Part shown: positions 3,411 to 56,485 of the stretch, one piece after another
Layout: each line of letters starts with the position of its first letter
How positions within the stretch are numbered: position 1 is the stretch's first letter
From: Dehalobacterium formicoaceticum
GTDB taxonomy: Bacteria; Bacillota; Dehalobacteriia; Dehalobacteriales; Dehalobacteriaceae
NCBI RefSeq assembly: GCF_002224645.1
Contig: NZ_CP022121.1
Span: 248,001-312,000 of the forward strand
Direction of reading: 5' to 3'
DNA length: 64,000 bases
Notes under the pieces: model-generated
The model's input: the letters and a program-made list of their open reading frames with translations, nothing else
Database searches by the model: none
Told to the model about the DNA's origin: nothing
Translations under genes and position numbers: made by a program

Positions 3411-3876
3411 CGTTTTCTAACGCTCCGATCACATTTGCCCATTTCCTACCTACATCCATAAAATACAAAATACGAAATTCATCACCGGATGGTTCCCATC
3501 CCTTTTGAATATCGATTTTCAGGTAAGAGTCAGGTAAAATTGAGGCCACCCGCTCCGGCCATTCGATCAAAGTAATCCCGGAAGAATGAAAATATTCTTC
3601 CATACCCAGTTCCTCCAGATCCTCATCCTCTTCCAACCGATACGCATCCATATGATATAAGGGATAGGTTCCTTGATATTCATTAATGATGGTAAAAGTG
3701 GGGCTGGTAATCTGCTCCTGCACTTTTAAGCCCTGGGCTACGCCCTTAGCAAAACTGGTTTTGCCCGCACCTAACTCTCCCGTGAGTGCAACAACAATCC
3801 CAGGGGTCAGATAAGCTGCCAGACGTTCACCCCACCTAAAAGTCTCTTCGGGACTTTTTGTTCTGATCGTTAGCAA
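3391..3876 (-). CDS. tsaE: tRNA t6A biosynthesis ATPase TsaE
   Basis: P-loop ATPase that drives the TsaB-TsaD complex. It carries Walker A GELGAGKTSF near residue 38, SPTFTIINEY, the YHMDAYRL motif and LIEWPERV, all in the family order. The reading frame is open from 3903, but the best start is a TTG at 3876. GGAGAGGGAG lies 5 nt upstream of it, and the protein then begins MLTIRTKSPEETF like other TsaE proteins (161 residues). It overlaps tsaB by 20 nt. A non-coding gap of about 80 nt separates it from the amidohydrolase upstream. Confidence 0.94.
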   Translation of the reverse strand: MLTIRTKSPEETFRWGERLAAYLTPGIVVALTGELGAGKTSFAKGVAQGLKVQEQITSPTFTIINEYQGTYPLYHMDAYRLEEDEDLEELGMEEYFHSSGITLIEWPERVASILPDSYLKIDIQKGWEPSGDEFRILYFMDVGRKWANVIGALENDENIRD

Positions 3877-5184: not shown

Positions 5185-5882
5185 CGCCGGCAAGATTGAA
5201 TAAACGCCTGAAACAAACGATAGCTTCCGATATCCTGCCGCCAAAGGCATTCCGGATGCCACTGCACACCTAAGGCAAAAGAATGTTCTTCCCCTTCAAT
5301 TCCTTCAACCACGTGATCCGCGGCAACAGCAGAAACCTGCAATCCCGGAGCAGGAGTTTTCACTGCCTGATGGTGAAAGCTGTTTACCTGGATATGATCC
5401 CCCGACATAATCTGGCTTAGTCTTGTTCCGGGAACCAGATTAACGGAGTGGGTCAGACACTCCCTGGGGGCCTCCTGGTCATGCTTCAACGCGGGCACCA
5501 TCTGGCTTTTAATATCCTGGAATATCGTACCACCCAGGGATAGATTCAATACCTGACAACCCCGGCATACTGCCAGGATCGGTTTTCCTGAGAAGAAGAA
5601 TTCCCTGCTCCAAGACAATTCAAAAGCATCCCGTTCCGGTGTAATTTCCCCCATGCCCAGAATGGGTTCTTCACCAAACAGCAGGGGATTGACATCCACT
5701 CCTCCCGATAAAATCAGTCCGTCAATGCATTTCAGATATTTTTCCCTGATGCTCTGCCGGGCTGTGGGAGGTATCAGTAAAGCTGCTCCACCCACCGCTT
5801 CAATCGCCTTAATATAGAAGTTCCGGACATAAAAATTCAGCCCATCTTCTCCGCAGGTAATCCCAATCAAGGGTATTTTCAA
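5181..5882 (-). CDS. Gamma-glutamyl-gamma-aminobutyrate hydrolase family (peptidase C26)
   Basis: Class I glutamine amidotransferase-like hydrolase acting on gamma-glutamyl amide bonds (PuuD/YvdE type), 233 residues. The fold markers are present: GITCGED at the start, LSGGVDVNP near residue 55, the nucleophile in AVCRGCQVLNLSLGG (Cys about 107), and the His/Glu of the triad in GVQWHPE near the C-terminus. The substrate is not determined by sequence. It is preceded by GGGAGGAGATATC upstream of the ATG. A weak terminator separates it from the EndoA gene upstream. Confidence 0.9.
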   Translation of the reverse strand: MKIPLIGITCGEDGLNFYVRNFYIKAIEAVGGAALLIPPTARQSIREKYLKCIDGLILSGGVDVNPLLFGEEPILGMGEITPERDAFELSWSREFFFSGKPILAVCRGCQVLNLSLGGTIFQDIKSQMVPALKHDQEAPRECLTHSVNLVPGTRLSQIMSGDHIQVNSFHHQAVKTPAPGLQVSAVAADHVVEGIEGEEHSFALGVQWHPECLWRQDIGSYRLFQAFIQSCRR

Positions 5883-38704: not shown

Positions 38705-38817
38705 ATCCTTTTATTCCATGAAGCAAAGCCGGATAGTTGCAATCCAACTTTAAAAATGTTATTATAATTTTCAAACCGGGGATTAAAACTTGCCTGAAAT
38801 ACGCGTTTACTTTATTA

Positions 38818-38998
38818 TGTCCTACCTACATTGATGAATTGGGAATCTAATGTCATGCAGCTGTCGAACCGTCCTCGAACGGATGACAAAAACAGACTCA
38901 GGATACCCACCTGCGAGAGCGCAGGTAAGGACATATAAAGGACGGTATTTTGGGCAGTAATTTATTTGATAAATTTATCAATTACCTTTGTTACTGCC
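38818..38998. other. Gene-free structured element beyond the Wadjet operon
   Basis: No ORF is credible in 38705-38998. Inverted repeats are dense: ATGTCCTACCT (38818) against AGGTAAGGACAT (38926-38937), a 7-bp hairpin ACCTGCG-AGAG-CGCAGGT, ACCGTCC (near 38866) against GGACGGT (near 38939), the palindrome TTGATAAATTTATCAA (38966-38981), and outer arms GGCAGTAA/TTACTGCC (38953-38998). The last pair abuts the jetD stop and could end the transcript, although no T run follows. The upstream group fits no riboswitch I know. Confidence 0.45.
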
Positions 38999-40363
38999 TC
39001 ACTTTGAAAAGGACGGGCAGTTTTTTATATACTCCTTCATGTCCTCAACCAATATCGGGATCAACTCTTCCTGATACCCGGCTTTTCCTGCCCATAACAT
39101 CTTCTCCTTTACTGATTGCAATTCCTCTGTCATGACACTGTTTAATTTCTTTAACCGGGTTTCAGAGATCGAAACGGCAGACAAGGATGCTGCATAATCC
39201 TCCGCGCCAAAATGCCAAAGCCTTACCTTCCCGGGATAACGCCGCAGGAGTTGTTGAGCCATTTGCAAACCTTCCGGATCAAAATCTCCCGAGTAATAAA
39301 TAAGAATGTCACTTGCTGCAAGGCGATCCATCATTAACAGGGCGGCCAGCTTAAACTGGCCGTGGGTACAAATCATCGCCGGCCGGCTCCCGGCGCTAAA
39401 ATGATCTAACACAGCTGAAAATACACCTGAATTTTCCAGCACAAATACTCGATGGGGACACTCCTGGCCTTGATCAAATGACATGGGGACAAATCTATTG
39501 ACCTTTACAATTTCCCGAATAGGCACATTCAGTACGATCCCTTGCCGAGCAGCCCATTGCCATATGGGCATTATTTCATCCTGTTCATCAAAAGCCACGA
39601 TCCCCGTAGAGGTAACAAAGTTCAGGATATCATCCCTGAGCAATCCAAAATACTCCATAACTTCGTTCTTTTCTTCCGTTGATGGGGAAGAATTTATCGG
39701 ATAAGTATCATCTGCTTGATTTCTTAAAAATTGCAGAGCGGAGATAAAGAAACGTCCCTGCTCTGTTCCCAAATCAAACCCATGAGGATCCTGGCAGATG
39801 CTATTGGCAAAGATGGGAAGGCGCAAGAAACCATCTTGAGGCAGCCGGGACAAAGCACTCAAGATATTTTTCAATTGGTTTTTCAGGGTTGACGGACTTT
39901 TATCATAGGCTTGGTGTATTCCTCGTGTGCCGGCACCTTTTTCTTGAATATGAGCCAACCACCCCCGGCAATTCTGATGATCATATTTTTGCTCCAGGTC
40001 CTTAAAAAAATCTTCTTTTTGCTCCTGATACTGCTGATAAGCCTCTGCCTTGGTCAAAATATCCTCTTCAAAATAAGCATCTAATAAATCTTTCAGCTTA
40101 ATACCGGCGTATCTGGTTTTATTCAAGGACTGTTCAAAGGTCTCCAGGGAAATCTCAGCCGAAACCTGATGCTTATAATCCTTGGATAAGAGCATGGACA
40201 GAGCTTCCTTTTCTTCCTTGGTCAGGTTGGTGAGGCGTACACTGCCGCCAATCCTGCCCAAACCCCGATACTTTTCGGCAAACAATGGAAAAAGACGGCG
40301 GAATCCTTTTTCACCTTTAAAAAAAGCTGCCGCCTGGCAAGTTTTGGATGGAATTTCAGGCAC
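38999..40363 (-). CDS. jetD: Wadjet nuclease subunit JetD (DUF2399/TIGR02679 type)
   Basis: Topoisomerase VI/Spo11-like nuclease of the Wadjet anti-plasmid complex. About 454 residues: an N-terminal arm domain (to about 200) and a C-terminal Toprim domain with the acidic motif ILIYYSGDFDPEGLQMA (DxDxxG) preceded by FVLENSGVFSAVL with the conserved Glu. The frame is open from 40387, but GAGAGAGG before a GTG at 40363 gives the start VPEIPSKTCQ and an 8-nt overlap with jetC. Its place at the end of jetA-B-C-D is the canonical order. Confidence 0.9.
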   Translation of the reverse strand: MPEIPSKTCQAAAFFKGEKGFRRLFPLFAEKYRGLGRIGGSVRLTNLTKEEKEALSMLLSKDYKHQVSAEISLETFEQSLNKTRYAGIKLKDLLDAYFEEDILTKAEAYQQYQEQKEDFFKDLEQKYDHQNCRGWLAHIQEKGAGTRGIHQAYDKSPSTLKNQLKNILSALSRLPQDGFLRLPIFANSICQDPHGFDLGTEQGRFFISALQFLRNQADDTYPINSSPSTEEKNEVMEYFGLLRDDILNFVTSTGIVAFDEQDEIMPIWQWAARQGIVLNVPIREIVKVNRFVPMSFDQGQECPHRVFVLENSGVFSAVLDHFSAGSRPAMICTHGQFKLAALLMMDRLAASDILIYYSGDFDPEGLQMAQQLLRRYPGKVRLWHFGAEDYAASLSAVSISETRLKKLNSVMTEELQSVKEKMLWAGKAGYQEELIPILVEDMKEYIKNCPSFSK

Positions 40364-43300
40364 CAATAATCGCCTCTCTCTCCTCATTATCGTCCACCTG
40401 ACTAAAGTCCCCTTGGCTTAAAAGATAACGTTTCTGCCCATCCCAGCGGTAGCGCACCACCGTCACATAAGGGGCGTTTTTGGGGCGCACCAGTTCACAT
40501 ATTGATAAAGAGGATACGGTATCGTAGTCACCCCACAGATTTTGAGAATTCATAATAAAATTAAAGCCCAGTTTCTCTACCAAATCAAACATATCCCGAA
40601 TATTGTTTTCGTCCACACCGGCAAAAGCCTCATCTAAAGAGATAATAAAAGGGGCGTCTTCCCGAGCTTCCAGATAGCGGGAATAGGCCGCGGAGAATAA
40701 GGGAATATACATGGCCATGGCTTTTTCCCCTCCACTAAACTGGTAGAAAACATTGTTGGTTAACTCCTTTTTTTGCTCCCCTGCCCTTTGGTAGTAAAGG
40801 GTAAAAGAAAACCATTGCCGATAATCCAGCATTTCCTTGATTACTTGATGAAAGGTCTCCCCATATCCTTTATCCTCCAATACCTCTTTGGCCTGATCCA
40901 CCTTGGCACGAAAATGCTGGGTTACCCGTTCCAGATCCGCTTCTTTGAGCAGACGGGAATCAAGGCGCAGTAAATTTACCAAGTCTTTGGTATCCATTTC
41001 CGCTTCATGTTCAGCAGTTCTGGGTTTCCAGCGCAAAGAAAAAGTAAGCCCGCTAGAGGTATCTCGCTCTTCCATCAGTTCGGATATTTTTTTCACCCAG
41101 CGTTCGGCACGATTAATTTTGCCCCGGATAATCCGCCCCACACTGTTCATAATAATTTCTTCATACAACTCCCGATCTTTTTCATTGAGCAGCATTTGTT
41201 GCAGTTCAATATCCTTATTCATCTGCTCAAAAACGTAATAGGGGCTGACCCGTTTGCCCTGGTATTCCATTAACAGCTGTACCCGGCGTGATTTCTGTTT
41301 GAGCTCCTCCCTCCTAAAATACATCAGAGGATCATCTGCTCCAAGGGGAAGAGTATCCTTTTCCAAGACAGACTCTTGGGTCAAGCGATATTCCATCAAA
41401 ACGCCTTGTTCCTGATAGAAGGTTTGATTTAATCTTTGGGTGATCTTATCCCGATCAGTATTTTCCTTAAGAAGAAAGCCATATTCCTGTAAGATATCTT
41501 TGCCCCATTTCAATAATTGCTCTGCCTGCAAAGTTTCTTCCGGGACAACCTTGGGTACCAGACTAAGTTGCAGCTCTTCCCATAAAATTTCTTGCCATAA
41601 AGCATGAAATTGCTCACTGAGCTTCAGCCTCTTACCCAGTTCCTCCAGCTCTTTAATTCGATTGTCAATTTGATTTTCCATCGTACTCATATTTTTTTCC
41701 AGGGTCCGCAATTCCTTAGGAATCAATTCCAGACGCTCTACCAGATGGGCGATACGCGCTTGAATTTCTTCAGCCCCCATTTCCCGCAAGCGATCTTCTA
41801 CCTGCTGCAAGCGTAAGGCATCCATATCAAGCTCACTCTTCAGAACATTGATTTCCCCTTTTAGCTCATCCACATCTGCCCGTGTTTCTTCCAAGGTTGA
41901 TTGCAATTGCTGCAAAACCTTCTCTCCATTAATAAAATCCTTATGGGTCAGCTCTAGTTGCTGGAGATCATGTCCATAGGACTTGATCCTTTGAAGAACC
42001 AGCTCATAATCTTCCTGCCGGGGAGGAACCGATAGCTCCTCCGTCAAACTACGCAGTCGCTGACGAATATTTTGTAAATTTTCCAGCAGCCGGCGTACTT
42101 TTTCATTTTTCACATCCACTTCATGACTATGAATCTTTTCTTTTTCCTGCAGCCCCTCCAGGACGCGAAATGATTCCCCGGTATCATGATCTTGGGGAAA
42201 CCCTTCATATTCCTCCTGAAGCTTTTTCAACCGTGCCGTCAAGACCTCTTTTTCCTGCTCCAGGTTTTCCTTCTCTTTAATTAAGTCGGCCAATTCCTGA
42301 GCCAATTGCTCCATTACTCTGGCCCGGTAACTGCGTCGTGCTTCTCGGCCAATATAGATGGATCCCTCTGTTTTTGGCGCATGACCCTTGAGCAGATCAA
42401 TACGATAGGTGCCGTCTTCCCGGAGCATCGTGCTCTTGTCCCCTTGGTCATCAATCAAAACACTGCGCAGCACTTGATCAATGTCTGAGGCAGCAACCCC
42501 GCTCCCTTCAACCGGAGTAGGGTAGAGAAAGTCAGCCAGAGTATGGGCAAAAAGATGGGGTTGGGGTTGAATTACCCGATCGAATTGTCCGGTCAGATGA
42601 GCTTGTTTTCCCGAAACCACCAAGGCATCCAAAAGACCCATTTGGGTGATGGCCGCCTCAATGCGTTCCCGATGCTCCGGTGCAATATGATCCTGGAATT
42701 CTACGGAACTAAAAAAGGGTACAAAGGGAATCCCATTTTCTTTCAAAGCCCGGCGTTCCTTATCCGTATCAGAATGACGAGGGGGCTCCGGCTCTTTGAT
42801 CTTTTTCCACGCTTCCACTTCCTCTTGTTTATGAAGAATTGCCTCGTCCTTATCTTTAATTAGGGATTTTTGACCCATGATCTGATAATTTAACTGATTC
42901 TGATAGCGTACCTGGGCCTGGCGCAAAGGTACCAGGACTTCTTCAAAGCGATATTGCTGATAAATTTGCATGATGCGTTGAGATATCAGTTGGATTTCTT
43001 CCTGGGAAAGCCTTAATTCCTGGTTTTCCTTTAACCATTGATGAAAAAGATTAAGCAGCCGATCCTTTTCCTCTTCAAAAAGCTGAGCCCATTTTTTGAC
43101 CTCAAAACGAGTTTGGTCCAATTGCTTCCGGGCTTCACCTAACTCATGATCACCCTCCTGATATTTTTCCTTGGTGTTTATCTCTTCTTGAAAATTTATT
43201 AGGATTTGCTCAATCTTTTTCTGATATTCATTGACTTCTTCCTTCCATAGATAGAAGGAAAAATCCTCTCCGAATTTTCGCCGGAACTCACCAATGGCGA

Positions 43301-44549
43301 TTTCATGACCGGGAAAATAACTTTCCCCTCCCGCATCATCCAGCAAGTCAGCAAGATCCTGGATCTCTGCTTCATATTGAGCCACTTTGTCTCCCTCAAC
43401 CCGTAATTTTCCATCCAGCTCCCGTTCCTTGCTCTGCTTGGTATCCAAGATCCCCCGCTTCTTATTTTTTGTTTCCTCCGTATCCTTAATATGCCCCAGG
43501 ATCCGCTGCCGCTCTTCTTCTGCTTTAAAAACGCTATGCTCCCTTAAGCTCTTCTCTTCTTCCTTTTTGACAATTTGTTCTTCCTCCAGCTGCTTCATCT
43601 GTGCTGCCAAGGTGATCAGATTATCTTGATGCCCTTGCAACTTCTGTTCCAGCTCTTTTCCCTGGCGCACCAATTCTTCTTGTTCTTTATGAGCCGCAAG
43701 TAACCCCTCCGCCTTTTCGGCCAGGACAAATTGATTATAGCGATCATATTGCTGACAAAGTCTTTTCAATGATTGCTGATCCCGTAAAAGTAAATCTAAT
43801 TGTTGCTTGGTTTGATCCATGCTCTCAATGGTATCCGATAAAGGGCGTAATTCCTCGTCCGACAGGCCAGGCAGGGATTCATTTAAGATCTCGTAAATCA
43901 CCGTAGGCTTAAAGTCCTTGGATAATTTAGGGCTTCTCAGCTGGATTAATAATTTAATCAGTTCTTCATATGCCTCCAGTGACTCAAAGCCAAAGATATG
44001 CTTATTCACCAGCTCCATATACTCTTTTTGGCTGCGCACCACCTTGCCCCCCTCTTGCAAGGCGTTTTCCAATTGGATTCTGCTTAAAGGTATTTTTTCC
44101 TGTTGTCCTGTTTCCACATTGTATTCCGTATTATAGAGAAAATAATCCCGCCCGATGCGACGATTATCCAGGATGACGAATCCCCAAAAGTCCAAATTGC
44201 TCTGCCTTTTCGCCCGTAAACCTATACCGGTGGTTAGATACTGATCTGTATCCCGGCGCTTATATTCCAAATAAAGATAGCCGGTGCGCTCATCACGATC
44301 GACAATTTCTTTTTCACCCAACAGATAGTCTTCCATTTTGCGTGCTCTGGAACCGAAAGGATCCAAACGGTCCGGACTCTTTCGTCCATCCAGCAAAACC
44401 GGAATGAAGCTTTGCATGGTTACCGATTTCCCGGAACCGTTGCCACCCCGTAAAAGCAATTTCCCATCTGTTAAATCAAATTCTTCTTCATCGTAATACC
44501 AGAAATTTAATAATCCGGCCCGATGCAGCTGCCATTTATTTTTTGTCAT
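40356..44549 (-). CDS. jetC: Wadjet SMC-like ATPase JetC (TIGR02680 type)
   Basis: The SMC motor that extrudes DNA to sense closed circles. 1397 residues. N-terminal HRAGLLNFWYYDEEEF and Walker A GGNGSGKS (residues 35-42), then long coiled coils (about 250-620 and 790-1000) around a hinge-like middle (AITQMGLLDALVVSGKQAHL). The C-terminal head has the ABC signature QFSGGEKAMAMYIPL and Walker B FIISLDEAFAGVD. The frame extends to 44678, but the ATG at 44549 with GAGGATGAGG upstream and 16 nt after the jetB stop fits the family start. All ATPase motifs are intact. Confidence 0.95.
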   Translation of the reverse strand: MTKNKWQLHRAGLLNFWYYDEEEFDLTDGKLLLRGGNGSGKSVTMQSFIPVLLDGRKSPDRLDPFGSRARKMEDYLLGEKEIVDRDERTGYLYLEYKRRDTDQYLTTGIGLRAKRQSNLDFWGFVILDNRRIGRDYFLYNTEYNVETGQQEKIPLSRIQLENALQEGGKVVRSQKEYMELVNKHIFGFESLEAYEELIKLLIQLRSPKLSKDFKPTVIYEILNESLPGLSDEELRPLSDTIESMDQTKQQLDLLLRDQQSLKRLCQQYDRYNQFVLAEKAEGLLAAHKEQEELVRQGKELEQKLQGHQDNLITLAAQMKQLEEEQIVKKEEEKSLREHSVFKAEEERQRILGHIKDTEETKNKKRGILDTKQSKERELDGKLRVEGDKVAQYEAEIQDLADLLDDAGGESYFPGHEIAIGEFRRKFGEDFSFYLWKEEVNEYQKKIEQILINFQEEINTKEKYQEGDHELGEARKQLDQTRFEVKKWAQLFEEEKDRLLNLFHQWLKENQELRLSQEEIQLISQRIMQIYQQYRFEEVLVPLRQAQVRYQNQLNYQIMGQKSLIKDKDEAILHKQEEVEAWKKIKEPEPPRHSDTDKERRALKENGIPFVPFFSSVEFQDHIAPEHRERIEAAITQMGLLDALVVSGKQAHLTGQFDRVIQPQPHLFAHTLADFLYPTPVEGSGVAASDIDQVLRSVLIDDQGDKSTMLREDGTYRIDLLKGHAPKTEGSIYIGREARRSYRARVMEQLAQELADLIKEKENLEQEKEVLTARLKKLQEEYEGFPQDHDTGESFRVLEGLQEKEKIHSHEVDVKNEKVRRLLENLQNIRQRLRSLTEELSVPPRQEDYELVLQRIKSYGHDLQQLELTHKDFINGEKVLQQLQSTLEETRADVDELKGEINVLKSELDMDALRLQQVEDRLREMGAEEIQARIAHLVERLELIPKELRTLEKNMSTMENQIDNRIKELEELGKRLKLSEQFHALWQEILWEELQLSLVPKVVPEETLQAEQLLKWGKDILQEYGFLLKENTDRDKITQRLNQTFYQEQGVLMEYRLTQESVLEKDTLPLGADDPLMYFRREELKQKSRRVQLLMEYQGKRVSPYYVFEQMNKDIELQQMLLNEKDRELYEEIIMNSVGRIIRGKINRAERWVKKISELMEERDTSSGLTFSLRWKPRTAEHEAEMDTKDLVNLLRLDSRLLKEADLERVTQHFRAKVDQAKEVLEDKGYGETFHQVIKEMLDYRQWFSFTLYYQRAGEQKKELTNNVFYQFSGGEKAMAMYIPLFSAAYSRYLEAREDAPFIISLDEAFAGVDENNIRDMFDLVEKLGFNFIMNSQNLWGDYDTVSSLSICELVRPKNAPYVTVVRYRWDGQKRYLLSQGDFSQVDDNEEREAIIGA

Positions 44550-44565
44550 GACGACCTCATCCTCT

Positions 44566-45747
44566 CTACTCCCCGTCGGCGGCAAAATCTGCCGGATATT
44601 TGCCCACAGTACGCACCAATAATGGGAAAAGTATGATTGTTCCCGTATCCCCTGCTCTTGATGCCATCTGCCAATCAATTAAATGAGCTAATAAATCACG
44701 GGCTATCTGGGGGATGTCTCCTTCCCGATATTGTTTGCTCCACCCAGCACCAAAGCGTTCCTGACAGATTTGCACCCATTTGGTAAAATCAACCTGTGTC
44801 ACCTGAAGTGAACCGTCTGTCTGCCGGGGAAGCTCCATTGTCTGCTGCTGCTCCCGGACAATTTGAGCAAATTGCAGGGCAATGTCGGAGATCGCCTTAT
44901 TATCCGGAAAAAGAGTAAAACGAGCCCTACGTTCCGGCAAGGACAGGAGTGCGGCATTTTTATATAATTCAAATTGAAACCCACTATGGCTTTCAATATC
45001 TTCCCGAATTCGGTTACGGTAATTACGCAGGTAGAGAAAATCCGGATCATCAGAGCTTTTACTATACATCACCGGGGAAAGAAACAAGATGCGATAAACC
45101 CGATGGCGTCGATTGATCCCTACATCTTCCTCTTCCCCCTGCCATTCTGCTGCTAAAATTTCTTCTTTGGTCCTGAACTGAAATAAATCCTTGGGGTAAG
45201 AACGCATGAAATAGCGGGCTGCCAAAGGAACCTCATAAAGGACCTCCGATTCTTCCCGATAGCCAAAATCAGCGATATCTCCATCGACCACCTTGAGAAT
45301 TCCGATATCTACGGCTGTTTGCAGCACGCGCACCAGGGATTTTCGATGCTCATAATGGGTCCAATCCAGTCCATCCTCTCCGGGATAAAGGCTTAACAAG
45401 TCCTCACAAAGATGAGACAGCAAAAATTGTTCATCCACACTTTTGCCCTCCAAAAAGGCTAACAGGCAACAAAAGATCCCATAGTCCCGGGGATGGATAA
45501 AATCCTGGATACCCATCCAAGCCTCCGCTTTAACAGGGATTTTTTCCAGCTTGGCAAAGGAACGATGCACAATAAGACGAAAGCCCAGCTTGTCTAAAAA
45601 ATAGGTGCGGAGCACCTGCTCCCGTTCCCTGATCATCTGATATTTTTCCGGTTCTTTTTCCCGCAACACCCAAAATTGTTCTAAAAGATCTGCTGCCGCT
45701 TCTGCGGCGATCTCATCAAAATAATATTTTTTTGTCCCCGAATCCAT
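44566..45747 (-). CDS. jetB: Wadjet subunit JetB (DUF2398/TIGR02678 type)
   Basis: 393 residues, the KITE-like partner (MukE role) that bridges the kleisin and the SMC head. It matches the DUF2398 family in length and order of features: an N-terminal helical region with FWVLREKEPEKYQMIREREQVLRTYF, the middle LSHLCEDLLSLYP, winged-helix segments, and the C-terminal QICQERFGAGWSKQYREGD. It begins 8 nt after the jetA stop and ends 16 nt before jetC. By itself the sequence shows no enzymatic motif. Confidence 0.9.
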   Translation of the reverse strand: MDSGTKKYYFDEIAAEAAADLLEQFWVLREKEPEKYQMIREREQVLRTYFLDKLGFRLIVHRSFAKLEKIPVKAEAWMGIQDFIHPRDYGIFCCLLAFLEGKSVDEQFLLSHLCEDLLSLYPGEDGLDWTHYEHRKSLVRVLQTAVDIGILKVVDGDIADFGYREESEVLYEVPLAARYFMRSYPKDLFQFRTKEEILAAEWQGEEEDVGINRRHRVYRILFLSPVMYSKSSDDPDFLYLRNYRNRIREDIESHSGFQFELYKNAALLSLPERRARFTLFPDNKAISDIALQFAQIVREQQQTMELPRQTDGSLQVTQVDFTKWVQICQERFGAGWSKQYREGDIPQIARDLLAHLIDWQMASRAGDTGTIILFPLLVRTVGKYPADFAADGE

Positions 45748-45755
45748 TTCATCAC

Positions 45756-47267
45756 CTATTCTAAAAATTGAATCACAAAGTTTGGCATCACCAGATTGCC
45801 GTCCTCTGCCCGCAGGGTAATTTCCTGATCATCAACTGTGATCAGACGAAACTTGCGCCCTGTCTCTGTTTTTGCCATGCGCTCCTGATGGGTCATGGAT
45901 TTTCCGATCCAGCGCAGGAGCGTTTTACGAATATAAGGATCGACCAGGGGCAAATCAGCCAGCACAATTTGATTTTGCTGCACGATTTCTGCCACCAGCT
46001 TTTGTTCTGCTTCCCGCTCTTTTAAATATGCGGTCAGGGTTTGCTGTTTTTCCTGCTGCAGGCTTTTGATAGCACCCGGTTTTGTTTTTTCTCGGTACCT
46101 TCGCACCCGTGGCTTGATCGTCACTTCCGTGGGTTCTTCATCCCAGATCTCGGCATAAATATCTTCTGTGGCCTTCCCGCCGGAAAATAAGTGCCGGGTA
46201 TGAAAAACACCGAAAACAGAAGCTGAAATTTCATGAGCCTCTTCCAAAGTGTCACAACGGGCAAACCAATCAGCCAGAAAAAGATAATCCTGACGCCGGC
46301 TTTTTAAAATATGATGCCGTTCACCGATGCGTTGCGCAAAACGGGTGATGCGGCGTATCGTTTCATTAGTCACGTTTTGGAGATAGATCAGATCACTCTC
46401 CCCACTCTCATCACCTAAAAACCAGGTGGTCAGATCCTGCCACTGACCGAAAAATCTTTCAATTAAACTCTCTTTTGGGGGACGTTCATCCAAGCGCGGG
46501 ATTTTTAGTTCATAATCAGCCAAACGAGTTGTAATCAATTGGATGAGCTGATCCGGAGCATCTGCCAGCAGGTTTTCGATACGAAAAGAGGTATGCTGTA
46601 AAGCGGTCATAAAATTACGCAGATAATCGGTAACAGCATCCTTGTAGGATAAAAAAGCTTCGGTCATCATCATTTCTTCTACTTTTTCGCTTTGTAAATG
46701 AGCCAAATAATCTGTGGCTCCTTCTGTTAACTTGCGAAAATTATCATACAATTCCTGCCAGAGGGCATAAAGCTCTTCATCAGACATGTCCTCTACCCCA
46801 TAGATTTTACGGTGCTGATGGGAAGAGTCTGACCGGTATGCCAGCAGCTTTATCAGTGAATTTAAGAGCCGGTCAAATAAAGTTCTTTCCAGGGAACCGC
46901 CAAAGGAATCCCCCATTTCCTCCAATCCCTGAACCATACGTTCTATTTCCACCGTATAAGGCGTACATTGATAGCGAAACTTTTTCTTTTTAAATTCCTC
47001 CACAGAGGTAACCCGGGTCGTATCCTGCCGGGGAATCAGATTTTTCCACTCCACCAGCTGGTTCAAATCCTGCTGCAGCTGTTCTTCCGTATAATCCTGA
47101 AAAAACATGCTTTGCCGAAGATAGGATAAAACCTCTTCGGGGAAGAGATAGTGATGCAGCCGTTCATATTGGGTATAAAAATAGCGCAAAATCCCTCGAT
47201 AACGCCCTACATTGGCTGCCGTTAAATAAGAAACCTCGGTAATGGGTTTTAATACTTTTTCATCCAT
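45756..47267 (-). CDS. jetA: Wadjet kleisin subunit JetA (DUF2397/TIGR02677 type)
   Basis: 503 residues, the kleisin (MukF role) that closes the SMC ring. N-terminal AANVGRYRGILRYFYTQYER and EEVLSYLRQ winged-helix features, a long helical middle, and the C-terminal segment LRWIGKSMTHQERMAKTETG are typical of DUF2397. The ATG at 47267 is preceded by GGTGAGAGGG, which is the last of five 10-bp repeats. A start 12 nt upstream is also open. It lies 39 nt after recD2 on the same strand. Confidence 0.92.
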   Translation of the reverse strand: MDEKVLKPITEVSYLTAANVGRYRGILRYFYTQYERLHHYLFPEEVLSYLRQSMFFQDYTEEQLQQDLNQLVEWKNLIPRQDTTRVTSVEEFKKKKFRYQCTPYTVEIERMVQGLEEMGDSFGGSLERTLFDRLLNSLIKLLAYRSDSSHQHRKIYGVEDMSDEELYALWQELYDNFRKLTEGATDYLAHLQSEKVEEMMMTEAFLSYKDAVTDYLRNFMTALQHTSFRIENLLADAPDQLIQLITTRLADYELKIPRLDERPPKESLIERFFGQWQDLTTWFLGDESGESDLIYLQNVTNETIRRITRFAQRIGERHHILKSRRQDYLFLADWFARCDTLEEAHEISASVFGVFHTRHLFSGGKATEDIYAEIWDEEPTEVTIKPRVRRYREKTKPGAIKSLQQEKQQTLTAYLKEREAEQKLVAEIVQQNQIVLADLPLVDPYIRKTLLRWIGKSMTHQERMAKTETGRKFRLITVDDQEITLRAEDGNLVMPNFVIQFLE

Positions 47268-47270
47268 GAT

Positions 47271-47320
47271 CCCTCTCACCCTTTCTCACCTTCTCTCACC
47301 CTATCTCACCCTATCTCACC
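47271..47320 (-). repeat. Five 10-bp tandem repeats across the recD2 stop and the jetA ribosome site
   Basis: On the minus strand GGTGAGA recurs at an exact 10-bp period five times, ending 4 nt before the jetA ATG. The first copy encodes the last RecD2 codons and its TGA stop; the last supplies the jetA ribosome site. A gain or loss of one copy would shift the RecD2 C-terminus and the leader length. Confidence 0.9.
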
Positions 47321-49471
47321 CTCCCAGCTTACCTCTGGGTTTAATCGTTGGGCCAGCATGGTATTCCTTTTGGTCGTCCTATTGTTTTTCACTGCCATAG
47401 CCACGGCTTTTTTGCTTCCCACCAGGACAAATACCTTTTTTGCCCGGGTAACGCAGGTATAAAGCAGGTTCCTTTGCAGCATCATATAATGCTGAGTCGT
47501 AAAAGGGGCGACCACAATTTTATACTCACTGCCCTGACTTTTGTGAATAGAGGTGGCATAAGCCAAAACCACTTCATCCAGCTCCGTAGCCTCATAAGGA
47601 ACATCATTGCCATCAAAATTTAGGATTAAAGTACGTTCTTCCGGATCCAATTGGGTGATACTGCCAATGTCTCCATTGAAAACGTTTTTATCATAATTGT
47701 TTTTGATCTGCATCACCTTGTCCCCCAGACGATAAACGTAGGCTCCATATTTCAAAGAAATTCCTGAAGGGTTCAGGGCTTCCTGTAAAACCATATTCAG
47801 GTTTGCCGCTCCCGTCTCCCCCCGGTGCATGGGACAGAGTACCTGGATATCCTGCAAAGGATCCACCCTATAATATTTGGGAAGCCTCTTCACACATAAA
47901 TCCTGAATCACTTGAACTACTTGTGTCGGCTCCTCCTCGTCAATAAAGAAAAAGTCGCTATCCTTACCCCCTTTTAATTCAGGGAACTTTCCTTGATTGA
48001 TTTTATGAGCATTGGTGATGATGGCACTCCCCTGAGCCTGGCGAAAAATTTTCGTGAGTTTAATCACATCCACCATGCCGGAATCAATAATATCCTTTAA
48101 TACATTGCCCGCCCCTACCGAGGGTAATTGATCCACATCTCCCACCAGAATTACCACCGTCTCATCAGCTACCCCTCGCAGCAGGTTATACATCAGAATA
48201 ATATCCACCATGGAGGTCTCGTCAATGATCAACACGTCACAGGCTAAAGGATTGTCCCGGTTTCTTTTGTACCCCTCGGGAGGTTTATATTCCAACAAGC
48301 GGTGAATGGTTTTAGCCTCCATGCCCGTTGCTTCCGCCATTCTTTTGGCAGCTCTGCCAGTGGGAGCCGCCAGGAGCACCTGTGCTCCCAATTGTTGAAA
48401 AATCTGAATCATCCCCAAGGTGGTCGTGGTTTTTCCTGTGCCGGGGCCTCCCGTTAAAACCATAAATTTGGAGGTGGCGGCTGTTTGAATCGCATTTTTT
48501 TGTACCTGATCATAAGTGATCTTTTGCTGATCCTGAATATCAACGATAATTTTCTCCGCATCATTGGCCTGGAATGGGCTGGGCTGGGCAGTAATCTCAC
48601 GAATTCGTTTTGCCGCTCCCAACTCACTATGATAAAAAGGGGGCAAAAAAATGGCATCCTCCCCATCTAAAATCACCGTCTGATCCTTAATAATTCGATC
48701 CAGGGTATCATTAAGCAGGGATTGATCAACTTCCAGGATTTTTTCCGCCTCAAGTAATAATTGTTCCCGAAAGGCAAAGCAATGGCCTTCGTTGGACAAT
48801 TGGTTCAGTACATAGACCAGACCGGAGCGGCAGCGGGGGAAGGAATTTTTATCAAAGCCCATTTGCCGGGCAATTTTATCTGCCGTTTTAAATCCAATCC
48901 CCCAGATATCATCCGCCAGGCGGTAAGGATTTTCTTTTACGATTTCGACGCTTTCGTTGCCATAGGTTTTGAATATTTTTACCGCATAGGCCGTGGACAC
49001 TCCATTACTCTGTAAAAAAATCATGACATTTTTGATTTCTTTCTGCTCCTGCCAGGCCTTTTTAATCATTACCAGGCGTTTTTCTCCGATCCCTTCCACC
49101 TGAGTAAGAGCATCCTGCTCCTCTTCCAGAACCCGCAAGGTATCCTCTTTAAAGTGACGGACGATCTTTTTCGCATACACCGGCCCGATCCCTTTAATCA
49201 AACCGCTGCCTAGATATTTTTCAATCCCTGCCACCGTGGCCGGCATGGTTTCCCGGTAATCCTGAACAGCAAACTGTCTCCCGTATTTACTATCCATCTT
49301 CCAATCACCCTTTAGGCGGATAATGGCGCCCACATTCACGGCAGCCAGACTGCCCACAACAGTAATTAAGTCGGTAAAACCCTTCGCCTTAATTTTGATC
49401 ACGGAAAAACCGTTTTCTTCATTTTGAAATGTAATCCTTTCCACTACGCCACTAATGTATTCCATGCCCAT
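47306..49471 (-). CDS. recD2: ATP-dependent RecD-like DNA helicase RecD2
   Basis: 5'-3' SF1B helicase. 721 residues with an N-terminal OB-like and helix-hairpin-helix part (IEKYLGSGLIKGIGPVYAKKI, VEGIGEKRLVMI, GIGFKTADKIARQMG), Walker A LTGGPGTGKTTTTLG, motif II VLIIDETSMVD, DVDQLPSVGAG, and the late YATSIHKSQGSEYK. The longer N-terminal extension without RecBC association marks it as RecD2. A TGGTATGAT extended -10 lies about 60 nt upstream. It is co-directional with jetABCD and may share the transcript. Confidence 0.95.
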   Translation of the reverse strand: MGMEYISGVVERITFQNEENGFSVIKIKAKGFTDLITVVGSLAAVNVGAIIRLKGDWKMDSKYGRQFAVQDYRETMPATVAGIEKYLGSGLIKGIGPVYAKKIVRHFKEDTLRVLEEEQDALTQVEGIGEKRLVMIKKAWQEQKEIKNVMIFLQSNGVSTAYAVKIFKTYGNESVEIVKENPYRLADDIWGIGFKTADKIARQMGFDKNSFPRCRSGLVYVLNQLSNEGHCFAFREQLLLEAEKILEVDQSLLNDTLDRIIKDQTVILDGEDAIFLPPFYHSELGAAKRIREITAQPSPFQANDAEKIIVDIQDQQKITYDQVQKNAIQTAATSKFMVLTGGPGTGKTTTTLGMIQIFQQLGAQVLLAAPTGRAAKRMAEATGMEAKTIHRLLEYKPPEGYKRNRDNPLACDVLIIDETSMVDIILMYNLLRGVADETVVILVGDVDQLPSVGAGNVLKDIIDSGMVDVIKLTKIFRQAQGSAIITNAHKINQGKFPELKGGKDSDFFFIDEEEPTQVVQVIQDLCVKRLPKYYRVDPLQDIQVLCPMHRGETGAANLNMVLQEALNPSGISLKYGAYVYRLGDKVMQIKNNYDKNVFNGDIGSITQLDPEERTLILNFDGNDVPYEATELDEVVLAYATSIHKSQGSEYKIVVAPFTTQHYMMLQRNLLYTCVTRAKKVFVLVGSKKAVAMAVKNNRTTKRNTMLAQRLNPEVSWEGEIG

Positions 49472-49585
49472 TCCTACCTAGTATTAGTCTTTTTATCATA
49501 GTATTCCTTTTATTATCTTCCTCATGATTCTTTTACTATCATACCATTATCAATCAACAAGGTAAAATACTTTGATACATAAAAA

Positions 49586-49621
49586 ATCCCTAACATGCTG
49601 CAGAGCAGACTATTTAGGGAT
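49586..49621 (-). terminator. Terminator of the DUF1992 gene
   Basis: ATCCCTAA and TTAGGGAT pair around a 20-nt loop, and the minus strand continues with a T run (TTTTTT). It lies 14 nt past the DUF1992 stop, upstream of recD2. Confidence 0.75.
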
Positions 49622-49634
49622 TAGAAATATCCTT

Positions 49635-50006
49635 TTACCATCCGAATTTTTGGTATATTTTCTTACGGTAGGTACTTAAAGCCGGACGGGAACGGCGCCG
49701 CTTCTCCATCAAGATGTTAAACCGGATGGCTTTCTCACTTAATTTATTTTTTAAATGCTTCCTTTCTTCGGGAGAATGGCAGCAGTCTATTAAATCCTGC
49801 AGAGAGAGGATCTCTTTCTTTAATTCCAATTCTTCAGGTAAGAAATGAGCATTTTTTAAAATTTTATAACCCATTCTTAATTCTTCAGGTATATTGGACA
49901 GGTTTTCAATTTCTACAGGCTTCCCCGCATACGCTAAATTCTTCAATTCTCCCCGTTCGATCGCTTCAAGAATCTTTTGCTCTGCAATTCTACTGATGAT
50001 ATCCAT
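49635..50006 (-). CDS. DUF1992 domain protein (DnaJ homologue C28-type)
   Basis: 123 residues, soluble. The conserved block IISRIAEQKILEAIERGELKNL is at the N-terminus, with GKPVEIENLSNIPEELRMGYKILKNA following. Family members occur from bacteria to the human DNAJC28 protein, mostly without a J domain; function unknown. The ribosome site GAAAGGATG is close to the ATG. It lies in its own short unit, with a terminator downstream. Confidence 0.88.
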   Translation of the reverse strand: MDIISRIAEQKILEAIERGELKNLAYAGKPVEIENLSNIPEELRMGYKILKNAHFLPEELELKKEILSLQDLIDCCHSPEERKHLKNKLSEKAIRFNILMEKRRRSRPALSTYRKKIYQKFGW

Positions 50007-50098
50007 CCTTTCATCACCCTTCCCCTATAATTCACCTAAATTAATTAGTTTTACCTGCGATGATGGCTAAAAAATCAGGGAAATGTCCCCGCATTGAT

Positions 50099-50760
50099 TT
50101 AAAGATGCATTCTTTTGCTAAGTTCCGATTTTATATTTTCACCTTGAAAGATAATGATGGCTGATAAAAATATAATATTTGCGGCTACACTTATAATGGA
50201 TGGGTATAACACATTTAACCAGCCAAAAAGAATAAACAGAAGCGGCACAATGCCAAATAAACCACCTAATAGAAAATAAACAATATAATCCCTGGCACTG
50301 AGCTTCATTACCTTAGCTGTCACATACAGGGTAAAGATAGCAGCGACACAAACAGCAGGAATCACATAATCTAAAGACCAGCCTTTCCAGCCGATCCTCC
50401 AATCCCATAAAACAGAAAGAATAGAAACAAGGGTTACCAGCCACATAATATTTTTGTGATATTATTTCTTTTCCTTAAAACCAATATAATGCTAAGCCAC
50501 ATGCTCAAGAGACCCAAAAACGTAAAAATTGGCAAATTTATATCAGCAGGAACCAACATGTAAACAGTAAAACTTACCACTAATGCCACAATACTCATAA
50601 AAACTAACATACGCATCACAAGGTGACGATCGTATCCTAATGGTATTTGAGGATATATCCGCATTCCATTGCTGTTATCCGCAGATAGCATATTCTTACA
50701 TAAAGGACATCTTTCCTTGTTTCCACGAATTTTAACCTGACAGTGATTGCAATATTGCAT
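50099..50760 (-). pseudogene. DUF6320 membrane protein with zinc ribbon, split by a one-base frameshift
   Basis: The first part (from ATG 50760, after GGGGGGAACT) starts MQYCNHCQVKIRGNKERCPL, a four-Cys zinc ribbon, and continues with two membrane helices to LVLRKRNNITK before going out of frame and stopping. The second part resumes as NIMWLVTLVSILSVLWDWRI with further helices to the stop at 50099. The two frames join if the five-A run (plus strand T at 50451-50455) had one more base. Together they make about 220 residues, as expected for a zinc-ribbon/multi-helix protein in this operon type. It may be a real lesion or a sequencing slip. Confidence 0.8.
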
Positions 50761-54636: not shown

Positions 54637-56485
54637 AAGAAGTATTACCCTCCAATTAACCGGCGGCGTGGTCATTATTGTCCTGGTTTCCATGCTGGCC
54701 ATTGGCCTCATCTTTATCCAAATGTTTAAGCAATATACCTTCGAAAGCCGTGAGGAAACTATGCTGACCCGGGGCCGAAGCATTGCAGAATTGGTTAATA
54801 TCAATGCAACCGGCGGCCATATGCAGGGTATGGGTGGAATGATGCATAATCTGGATATCCTGGCGGAAGCCAAGATATGGATTATCGATCAGACCGGCAA
54901 TCCTGCTGCCATGTCGGGGATGGGTCAAGGAATGGGCAAGGGGCGCGGGCACATGAATAATTTGAATAACATGAACAATTCCGAACCGCTGCCCCAAGAG
55001 GCGGAAAAGGTCATTGTGGATGTGCTGTCCGGCGGGGAATCGGTGAGTGAAAGTTTCAGCAGCGTTTATCAGGAAGCTACCCTCACTGTCGGAGTGCCTG
55101 TACAAGATTCGTCAGGTCAGATTACCGGGGCCGTACTCCTCCACGCCCCGGTGGCGGGGGTGACTCCATTATTAAATCAAGCCAACCGTATTTTGGTCCT
55201 TAGTTTGCTGGGCGCTCTGCTATTAGCCATCGCTTTGGGTCTGGCCTTTTCCCGCTATTTTGCCCGTCCCTTAAAGACCATGAACCGCACCGCACTGGCT
55301 ATGGCCGGGGGAAATTATGCTGTGCAGACAGGGATTGAACGGGAGGACGAAATTGGTCAATTGGGGCAATCCCTGGATCTTCTGGCACACCGCTTAGGTA
55401 ATACCATCGATCTGCTTTTTCAAGAGAAGAGCAAGTTAAATGATATTATTGCCAGTATGGCGGAAGGTCTGGTCGCCTTTGATCGCGAGTTAAAACCCCA
55501 GAGCATGAACTTTGCCTTGTCTCAGATTATGTATAATGGCTTGCCCTACCCGGATGAAATCCTGGCCAATCATTTTCGGGAACTGAGCCTGGAGGCTGAT
55601 TTAAAAGAAATTATGGAGCAAAAAAAATCCTCCATCATTATGAAGGATTGGAAGGGGAAAAAACTTAAATTTATCCTTTCCCCCATCAGCAACAATCTCG
55701 GAATGGTGACAGGTTGTGTGGCACTGGTGCAAGATGTCAGCGAAAGTGAGCGTCTCGAACAATTGCGCCGTGATTTTGTCGCCAATGTCTCCCATGAATT
55801 TCGCACACCCCTTACCGTCATCCGAGGTTCCCTGGAAGCATTGGTAGACGGTACCATAATTGAAGATCAGGAAAAGAAGCGCTATCTTTCAAGAATGCTT
55901 GCCGAAACCCGTGGCTTAGAACGCTTGGTAGGAGATCTTTTGGATCTGTCCCGCCTCCAATCGGGTAAGATTACCATGAATATAGAAGAAATTCATCTGC
56001 CCACCCTGCTTTCTGATGTGCTGAAAAGTCTCCAAACCTTGGCCGATAAAAAGGAGATTCAAATGCGCTATGATGGGGAAAAAAATTTACCCACGATTCC
56101 GGGAGATTATGACCGCTTGCGCCAAATGCTGGTCATCTTTCTGGATAATGCTATCAAATATTCTCCTCCCCATACTTTAGTCTCTGTCGAAACTAAGGAT
56201 CTGCAGGATCAGACCCTCACCATTAACATCCACGACCAAGGTCCGGGCATTGCGCCGGAACAGCTTCCCCATATTTGGGATCGATTCTATAAAGGAGAAA
56301 AATCTCGCCAGGGCGGCGGGACTGGGCTGGGTCTGGCTATTGCCAAGCATCTGATTGATCTCCATCATGGCAGCGTTACTGTAGCAAGCGTCTTGGATCA
56401 AGGCACCATGATCGAAATCAAGCTGCCCCTGTCCTTTAAGACGCTTAATACGCCAGTGTTTCTCCCGTCTCAAAAAGATAAATAA
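54629..56485 (+). CDS. Sensor histidine kinase with Met-rich extracytoplasmic domain
   Basis: 618 residues: membrane helix 1 (about 9-31), an extracytoplasmic domain of about 150 residues with Met/His-rich stretches (GGHMQGMGGMMHN and AAMSGMGQGMGKGRGHMNN), membrane helix 2 (ILVLSLLGALLLAIALG), HAMP, a PAS-like region (about 275-370), HisKA with the phospho-His in NVSHEFRTPLTVIRG, and HATPase (DNAIKYSP, DQGPGIAPEQ, GGGTGLGLAI). GAGG precedes the ATG at 54629, which overlaps the regulator gene by 8 nt. The last 41 nt overlap the end of addA on the other strand. Confidence 0.92.
   Translation: MFKRSITLQLTGGVVIIVLVSMLAIGLIFIQMFKQYTFESREETMLTRGRSIAELVNINATGGHMQGMGGMMHNLDILAEAKIWIIDQTGNPAAMSGMGQGMGKGRGHMNNLNNMNNSEPLPQEAEKVIVDVLSGGESVSESFSSVYQEATLTVGVPVQDSSGQITGAVLLHAPVAGVTPLLNQANRILVLSLLGALLLAIALGLAFSRYFARPLKTMNRTALAMAGGNYAVQTGIEREDEIGQLGQSLDLLAHRLGNTIDLLFQEKSKLNDIIASMAEGLVAFDRELKPQSMNFALSQIMYNGLPYPDEILANHFRELSLEADLKEIMEQKKSSIIMKDWKGKKLKFILSPISNNLGMVTGCVALVQDVSESERLEQLRRDFVANVSHEFRTPLTVIRGSLEALVDGTIIEDQEKKRYLSRMLAETRGLERLVGDLLDLSRLQSGKITMNIEEIHLPTLLSDVLKSLQTLADKKEIQMRYDGEKNLPTIPGDYDRLRQMLVIFLDNAIKYSPPHTLVSVETKDLQDQTLTINIHDQGPGIAPEQLPHIWDRFYKGEKSRQGGGTGLGLAIAKHLIDLHHGSVTVASVLDQGTMIEIKLPLSFKTLNTPVFLPSQKDK

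What the first reader, a model, noticed from the sequence alone, without database searches (positions are those of the whole stretch)
47271..47320. 10-bp tandem repeats join the recD2 stop codon to the jetA ribosome site
Five exact-period copies of a GGTGAGA unit span from the RecD2 C-terminal codons and stop to 4 nt before the jetA ATG. Every copy is itself Shine-Dalgarno-like. Ten is not a multiple of three, so slippage would change the RecD2 C-terminus and the spacing or number of ribosome-docking sites for JetA. This is a plausible slipped-strand switch for the whole defence operon, or a multi-site standby ribosome platform.
Basis: partly seen in the sequence, partly recalled or inferred. 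Interest (0 to 1): 0.6.

Follow-up and report, generated by a model that had tools for sequence, protein, structure and literature searches.

The report
Repeat at recD2-Wadjet operon seam
Five near-identical 10-letter repeats join a DNA-repair gene to an anti-plasmid defence operon; they look like duplicated copies of the defence operon's own ribosome-binding site at the seam between the two, and adding or losing one copy would not alter the repair protein, so they are probably not an on/off switch.

Summary
The array is real: five units of exactly 10 bp on the minus strand (47270-47319), running from the last RecD2 codons to 2 nt before the jetA ATG (47267). A three-unit pattern of this unit occurs only here in the 3.77-Mb genome, but short-period arrays of similar score occur elsewhere in a 444-kb sample. 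The "switch" reading fails one premise: all ten single-unit losses or gains in silico leave the RecD2 C-terminus unchanged; only the 38-nt stop-to-start gap changes, by 10 nt. Context explains the array better. In one family relative, recD2 is followed at once by a convergent 6S RNA gene. Here the type II Wadjet operon jetABCD sits exactly between recD2 and that 6S RNA, and the array is the recD2-side seam. Some distant jetA genes carry a single GGTGA ribosome site at about the same place, so the array most likely arose by tandem duplication of jetA's own site. It probably now serves as a C-free leader that supplies recD2's stop and jetA's ribosome site. A multi-site standby platform and a unit-number-dependent G-quadruplex remain untested. 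No second strain could be examined.

The parts
47270..47319 (-). Array of five 10-bp units: unit 1 47319-47310 GTGAGATAGG, unit 2 47309-47300 GTGAGATAGG, unit 3 47299-47290 GTGAGAGAAG, unit 4 47289-47280 GTGAGAAAGG, unit 5 47279-47270 GTGAGAGGGA. No C in all 50 nt.
47306..49471 (-). recD2 (RecD2/YrrC-type helicase, 721 aa); last residues GEIG and the stop (47308-47306) are encoded by the array
45756..47267 (-). jetA (DUF2397; JetA2), ATG 47267; an in-frame GTG lies 12 nt upstream at 47279 inside unit 5
   Evidence: most aligned relatives begin with the residues MDE or alike at the corresponding ATG
44566..45747 (-). jetB (DUF2398; JetB2)
40356..44549 (-). jetC (SMC/MukB-like; JetC2); start ATG 44549 inferred from where the profile match begins; the longer ORF starts TTG 44678
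38999..40387 (-). jetD (DUF3323 + DUF2399; JetD2); profile matches end at residues 450-456 of 462; the tail YIKNCPSFSK lies in DNA shared with the recD2/6S boundary of a relative
39015..39038 (-). 24-nt stretch at the 3' end of jetD that matches the last codons of recD2 in relative G001 at 22 of 24; it is the far seam of the jet block
38788..38960 (+). 6S RNA (RF00013), convergent with jetD; the orthologous 6S in G001 is convergent with recD2
47299..47325 (-). Canonical G-quadruplex motif GGG-A-GGG-TGAGATA-GGG-TGAGATA-GGG made from recD2's GGGAGG and units 1-2; lost if one of the two identical units is removed

Best explanation
The array is the seam between recD2 and a type II Wadjet operon placed between recD2 and its convergent 6S RNA gene. 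It most likely arose by tandem duplication of jetA's own ribosome-binding stretch (GGTGA) at that seam. It works as a passive leader: unit 1 encodes RecD2's last residues, unit 2 gives RecD2 its stop, and unit 5 gives jetA its Shine-Dalgarno, 38 nt downstream of that stop. jetABCD would then be transcribed by read-through from recD2 and translated from unit 5, with little dependence on how many units stand in between. Shown: array, gene order, single-unit changes leave RecD2 intact, single GGTGA sites in some distant jetA leaders, 6S next to recD2 in one relative. Inferred: direction (gain here rather than loss in the relative), origin by duplication, read-through transcription, little effect of unit number.
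For: (1) In G001 (same family) recD2 ends at L018:5221 and a convergent 6S RNA starts at 5247. In the window the corresponding 6S follows jetD and aligns to it over 229 positions at 76% identity, while recD2 aligns up to codon 'RL' and then stops. (2) The far seam matches too: 22 of 24 nt between G001's recD2 3' end and the window's jetD 3' end, in the same frame; jetD profile matches end at residues 450-456 of 462, just before or inside that tail, and three of four relatives' JetD C-termini that could be read differ there. (3) jetA is found in 1 of 43 genomes of the class but in 66 of 398 spread over the phylum; JetA identity exceeds RecD2 identity to several of the same genomes (G343 65 against 48%, G181 62 against 44%, G249 53 against 39%). 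(4) Among 33 other jetA leaders, 11 hold GGTGA within 60 nt and none holds it at 10-nt spacing; L006, L008 and L026 have it 11-12 nt before the ATG, near unit 5. (5) 10 of 10 single-unit events keep the RecD2 tail. (6) The terminator scan of 46800-50200 found no site between recD2's end and jetA. (7) Short tandem arrays at gene 3' ends are not peculiar to this place in the genome (L063 14856, L064 10712 and L064 15058).
Against: The empty-site inference rests on one relative (G001). In G002 recD2 is followed by an Rrf2-type gene, and in G003 recD2 was not found. The sequences also fit a loss of jetABCD in G001 through the short match at the two seams. JetA of G419 is 66% identical while its RecD2 is 67%, so that genome gives no sign of transfer. 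Most jetA leaders (22 of 33) have no GGTGA within 60 nt, so the ancestry of the unit is plausible, not proven. No transcript data: read-through and use of unit 5 are inferred. The scan does list promoter-like hits inside recD2, for example at 48225, so an internal promoter is possible.
Confidence: 0.6

Rival explanations
1. Multi-site standby platform: the C-free leader with five SD-like sites lets ribosomes that finish RecD2 or arrive anew dock, slide and re-initiate on jetA, so the units raise JetA output roughly with their number.
For: All five units pair with the canonical anti-SD at -8.5 kcal/mol or better; the stretch just upstream reaches -12.3; no C in the 50 nt. The stop-to-start gap of 38 nt is short enough for re-initiation (general knowledge).
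Against: No such platform in 33 other jetA leaders, so jetA does not need it. Repeats of an SD-like unit will be SD-like whatever their role. Part of the leader is predicted to pair with the start of jetA (-9.6 kcal/mol over 90 nt), so it is not wholly open. My paper search (titles and abstracts of the listing only) showed no described case of this kind.
Confidence: 0.18
2. Slipped-strand contingency switch of the Wadjet operon.
For: Direct repeats with exact period; the longest perfect tract is two units plus seven nt; the gap and the number of sites would change.
Against: RecD2 unchanged in 10 of 10 single-unit events; jetA frame and proximal SD untouched. Units 3-5 differ from units 1-2. 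No unit-number data. One paper of 5.39 million held both 'Wadjet' and 'phase variation' (listing only: a review with one mention of Wadjet).
Confidence: 0.08
3. Unit-number-dependent G-quadruplex: recD2's GGGAGG plus the two identical units form a G4 in the mRNA, 32-58 nt upstream of the jetA ATG and over the RecD2 stop, which affects termination or re-initiation; loss of one identical unit removes it.
For: Canonical motif at 47299-47325; G4-aware folding prefers it (-11.4 against -7.8 kcal/mol); deletion of one identical unit removes the motif and the prediction.
Against: Two such motifs in the window, against a mean of 2.38 (maximum 9) in 50 Markov simulations, so its presence is not surprising. 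Two loops of 7 nt make it weak. Translating ribosomes would unwind it.
Confidence: 0.06
4. The array is older than the jet insertion, a repeat at the recD2 3' end into which jet was later joined.
For: In G419 a different tandem array (30-bp unit, 3.4 copies) begins at the recD2 3' end, so recD2 3' ends may be prone to such duplication.
Against: No such array after recD2 in G001 or G002; the unit's shared motif resembles jetA leaders, not recD2 ends.
Confidence: 0.08

Closest known systems
Type II Wadjet (JetABCD) anti-plasmid systems
   Same: Gene order A-B-C-D, all four best matched by the PADLOC type 2 models
   Different: Joined directly behind recD2 with a 10-bp array as the junction; in the DNA fetched, recD2 was found next to 0 of 33 other jetA genes (upstream DNA was only 210-960 nt in 4 of them)
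Phase-variable loci with tandem repeats in a leader, e.g. pil1 of Streptococcus gallolyticus (PMC3894217; abstract and found passages read)
   Same: Short tandem repeats in transcribed leader DNA upstream of an operon, overlapping a stop codon of an upstream reading frame
   Different: pil1 has 22 GCAGA repeats, out-of-frame changes that move the stop, and a terminator that the ribosome opens. Here: 5 impure units, the stop is restored after every single-unit event, and no terminator was found in the gap
Ordinary short tandem duplications in intergenic DNA
   Same: Period, copy number and score like other arrays in 444 kb of the same genome
   Different: This one is made of SD-like units and supplies a stop and a ribosome site to two genes

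Membership tests
Type II Wadjet system | jetA, jetB, jetC, jetD in one run on one strand with type 2 profiles | tested here: met
   E-values 1.5e-191, 6.9e-156, 0 and 5e-150 for JetA2, B2, C2, D2
Type II Wadjet system | Cleaves circular DNA / blocks plasmids | not testable with these tools
   needs an assay
Slipped-strand contingency (phase-variable) locus | Repeat number varies between cells or strains | not testable with these tools
   one genome of the genus held; strain EZ94 exists in print but its sequence is not on hand
Slipped-strand contingency (phase-variable) locus | Unit gain or loss changes a reading frame | tested here: not met
   10 of 10 single-unit events leave RecD2 unchanged; jetA starts downstream of the array
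Slipped-strand contingency (phase-variable) locus | Unit gain or loss changes promoter or SD spacing so as to alter expression | tested here: inconclusive
   the proximal SD keeps its place; the stop-to-start gap changes by 10 nt; effect on expression unknown
Slipped-strand contingency (phase-variable) locus | Many identical units in a row | tested here: not met
   five units, only two identical
Ribosome standby site | Open single-stranded region near the ribosome site that raises translation | tested here: inconclusive
   C-free array, but a 90-nt leader is predicted to pair partly with the start of jetA (-9.6 kcal/mol); no translation data
RNA G-quadruplex | Four runs of three G with loops of 1-7 | tested here: met
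   47299-47325, minus strand; formation not tested

The most novel reading that the evidence does not exclude
The number of array units tunes an anti-plasmid Wadjet operon without any frame change: slippage between the two identical units makes or breaks a G-quadruplex over the RecD2 stop and changes the number of ribosome docking sites, so that JetA re-initiation varies between cells.
Probability: 0.06. Interest if true: 0.6.

Novelty: new member of a known kind. Interest (0 to 1): 0.28.

Why it matters
If the passive reading is right, this is a legible example of how a defence operon is wired into a host transcription unit: recD2 takes its stop codon from the newcomer's leader and jetD takes its last codons and stop from the DNA at recD2's old end, next to the 6S RNA gene. 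That is of use to those who study how defence operons settle next to housekeeping genes. If the unit number did tune JetA, it would be a frame-independent way to vary plasmid immunity between cells; a spontaneous loss of jetABCD in another Clostridium went along with much easier plasmid uptake, in a strain that had also lost other defence genes (PMC12287153, abstract and found passages).

Tried and rejected
Considered and rejected: RecD2 frame switching. A genome-wide family of this repeat (only here). A mobile element of phage or plasmid origin that carries this jetA: no match in the phage collection, none confirmed in viral contigs, and only matches below 60% identity in 19 plasmid records. 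A clean target-site duplication at the two seams: none seen by eye. A terminator or attenuator between the genes: none found by the scan. A described link between recD2 and Wadjet: no paper held both words. 6S/ssrS as an integration site for islands: 13 papers by listing only, none followed up. A six-term search on repeats and SD spacing gave no paper; a looser one gave the pil1 paper.

Mistakes and limits: jetA was translated from a wrong end, so its jetA start list is void; one search repeats it correctly. The recD2 part used the right sequence. Start codons were picked by a script. L006 and L026 show the same leader, so 33 other leaders are 32 distinct ones at most. Only 29 of the other genomes' jetA matches were fetched as loci, the best-scoring ones. 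JetD of L023 could not be read at the C-terminus: the script read the wrong strand. In one search the segment ended soon after the jetA ATG, so the cases with no or one unit are reported there as 'no stop'; reading on by eye, with one unit RecD2 would stop at the TGA over jetA codons 2-3, and with none the two frames would fuse.

Full report
What is there. The minus strand from 47319 to 47270 holds five units of exactly 10 bp, GTGAGATAGG twice, then GTGAGAGAAG, GTGAGAAAGG and GTGAGAGGGA, followed by TC and the jetA ATG at 47267. TRF gives it score 77, the top row of the window. A three-unit pattern is found nowhere else in the 3,766,545-bp genome. Unit 1 encodes part of RecD2's last residues GEIG, unit 2 holds its TGA, and unit 5 lies directly before jetA.

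Is it more than chance? Yes as a pattern (4 matches against a mean of 0.35). It is not unique as a kind: 3 of 200 simulated 64-kb sequences reach its TRF score, and the window plus 380 kb of the same genome hold five period 8-12 arrays with score 77 or more, this one included. Three other short arrays in the sample overlap the 3' end of an ORF (L063 14856, L064 10712, L064 15058).

Would slippage switch anything? I removed or doubled each unit in turn in a script. In all ten cases RecD2 ends NPEVSWEGEIG*, and the gap to the ATG is 28 or 48 instead of 38 nt. With two units removed, 9 of 10 combinations keep GEIG and one gives GERR. With one unit or none RecD2's stop leaves the array. jetA's frame is never touched because it starts after the array.

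The neighbourhood. jetA, jetB, jetC and jetD match the type 2 Wadjet models. The family has four genomes held, and jetA is in this one alone; it is in 1 of 43 genomes of the class and in 66 of 398 of the phylum sample. In G001, recD2 is followed after 25 nt by a convergent 6S RNA. In the window that 6S lies behind jetD. The two 6S regions align at 76% over 229 positions; the recD2 genes align up to codon 'RL' near the end. A further 24-nt piece, 22 of 24 identical, links the last codons of G001's recD2 with the last codons of the window's jetD, in the same frame. JetD profiles end at residues 450-456 of 462. So the jet block sits between recD2 and 6S, and each border gene ends in DNA of the other side: recD2 stops in the jet leader, and jetD stops in the old recD2/6S border. 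A DMT permease lies near the same 6S in G002 too (L078, 56% identical), where recD2 is elsewhere.

Gain or loss? The rarity of jetA in the class and the higher identity of JetA than RecD2 to G343, G181 and G249 speak for gain by transfer. G419, with 66% for JetA and 67% for RecD2, gives no such sign. The seam sequences alone would also fit a loss in G001. I put gain at about 0.85.

Where does the unit come from? Of 33 other jetA leaders, 11 contain GGTGA within 60 nt of the start and none has it in a 10-nt series. In L006/L026 and L008 it stands 11-12 nt before the ATG, near the place of unit 5. Duplication of jetA's own ribosome site is the simplest origin. It is an inference.

How it most likely works. 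A C-free leader (A 17, G 26, T 7, C 0) with a strong proximal SD in unit 5 and no terminator found in the gap should let the recD2 transcript run into jetABCD and ribosomes start at jetA. The outer units are probably passengers. The standby platform would need a graded reporter response. The G-quadruplex motif (47299-47325) depends on both identical units and is favoured in G4-aware folding (-11.4 against -7.8 kcal/mol), but such motifs are no more common in the window than in simulations (2 against a mean of 2.38).

What is known. The closest described device is the pil1 leader of S. gallolyticus (PMC3894217, abstract and passages), where repeat number moves a leader-peptide stop relative to a terminator. 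The features tested here differ. I found no paper with both recD2 and Wadjet and one review with both Wadjet and phase variation (listing only). The paper on the class Dehalobacteriia did not contain the words defence, defense, Wadjet or CRISPR (word search only).

Verdict.

Noticed in passing
L081 (G419) 3640-3742: A different tandem array (30-bp unit, 3.4 copies; TRF also reports a 61-bp period to 3760) begins at the recD2 3' end in this distant genome, over its last codons and stop as read. Two of the recD2 3' ends seen here carry arrays; none does in G001 or G002.
   Followed up: partly
window 39015-39038: The 3' end of jetD overlaps a likely terminator of the convergent 6S RNA (CTGCC...GGCAG followed by TTTTTTATA on the plus strand, read by eye); in G001 the last codons of recD2 do the same.
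   Followed up: partly
window 38788-38960 and G000:C1:2786503-2786682: Two 6S RNA genes in each of the four family genomes; the one beside recD2/jet is the lower-scoring of the two.
   Followed up: no
L062 12176-12237, L065 3911-4026 and 6477-7054: Repeated elements with GAACCGTCCCCTGTTC-like cores in tandem copies elsewhere in this genome.
   Followed up: no
window 56311-56331: A second canonical G-quadruplex motif, plus strand.
   Followed up: no
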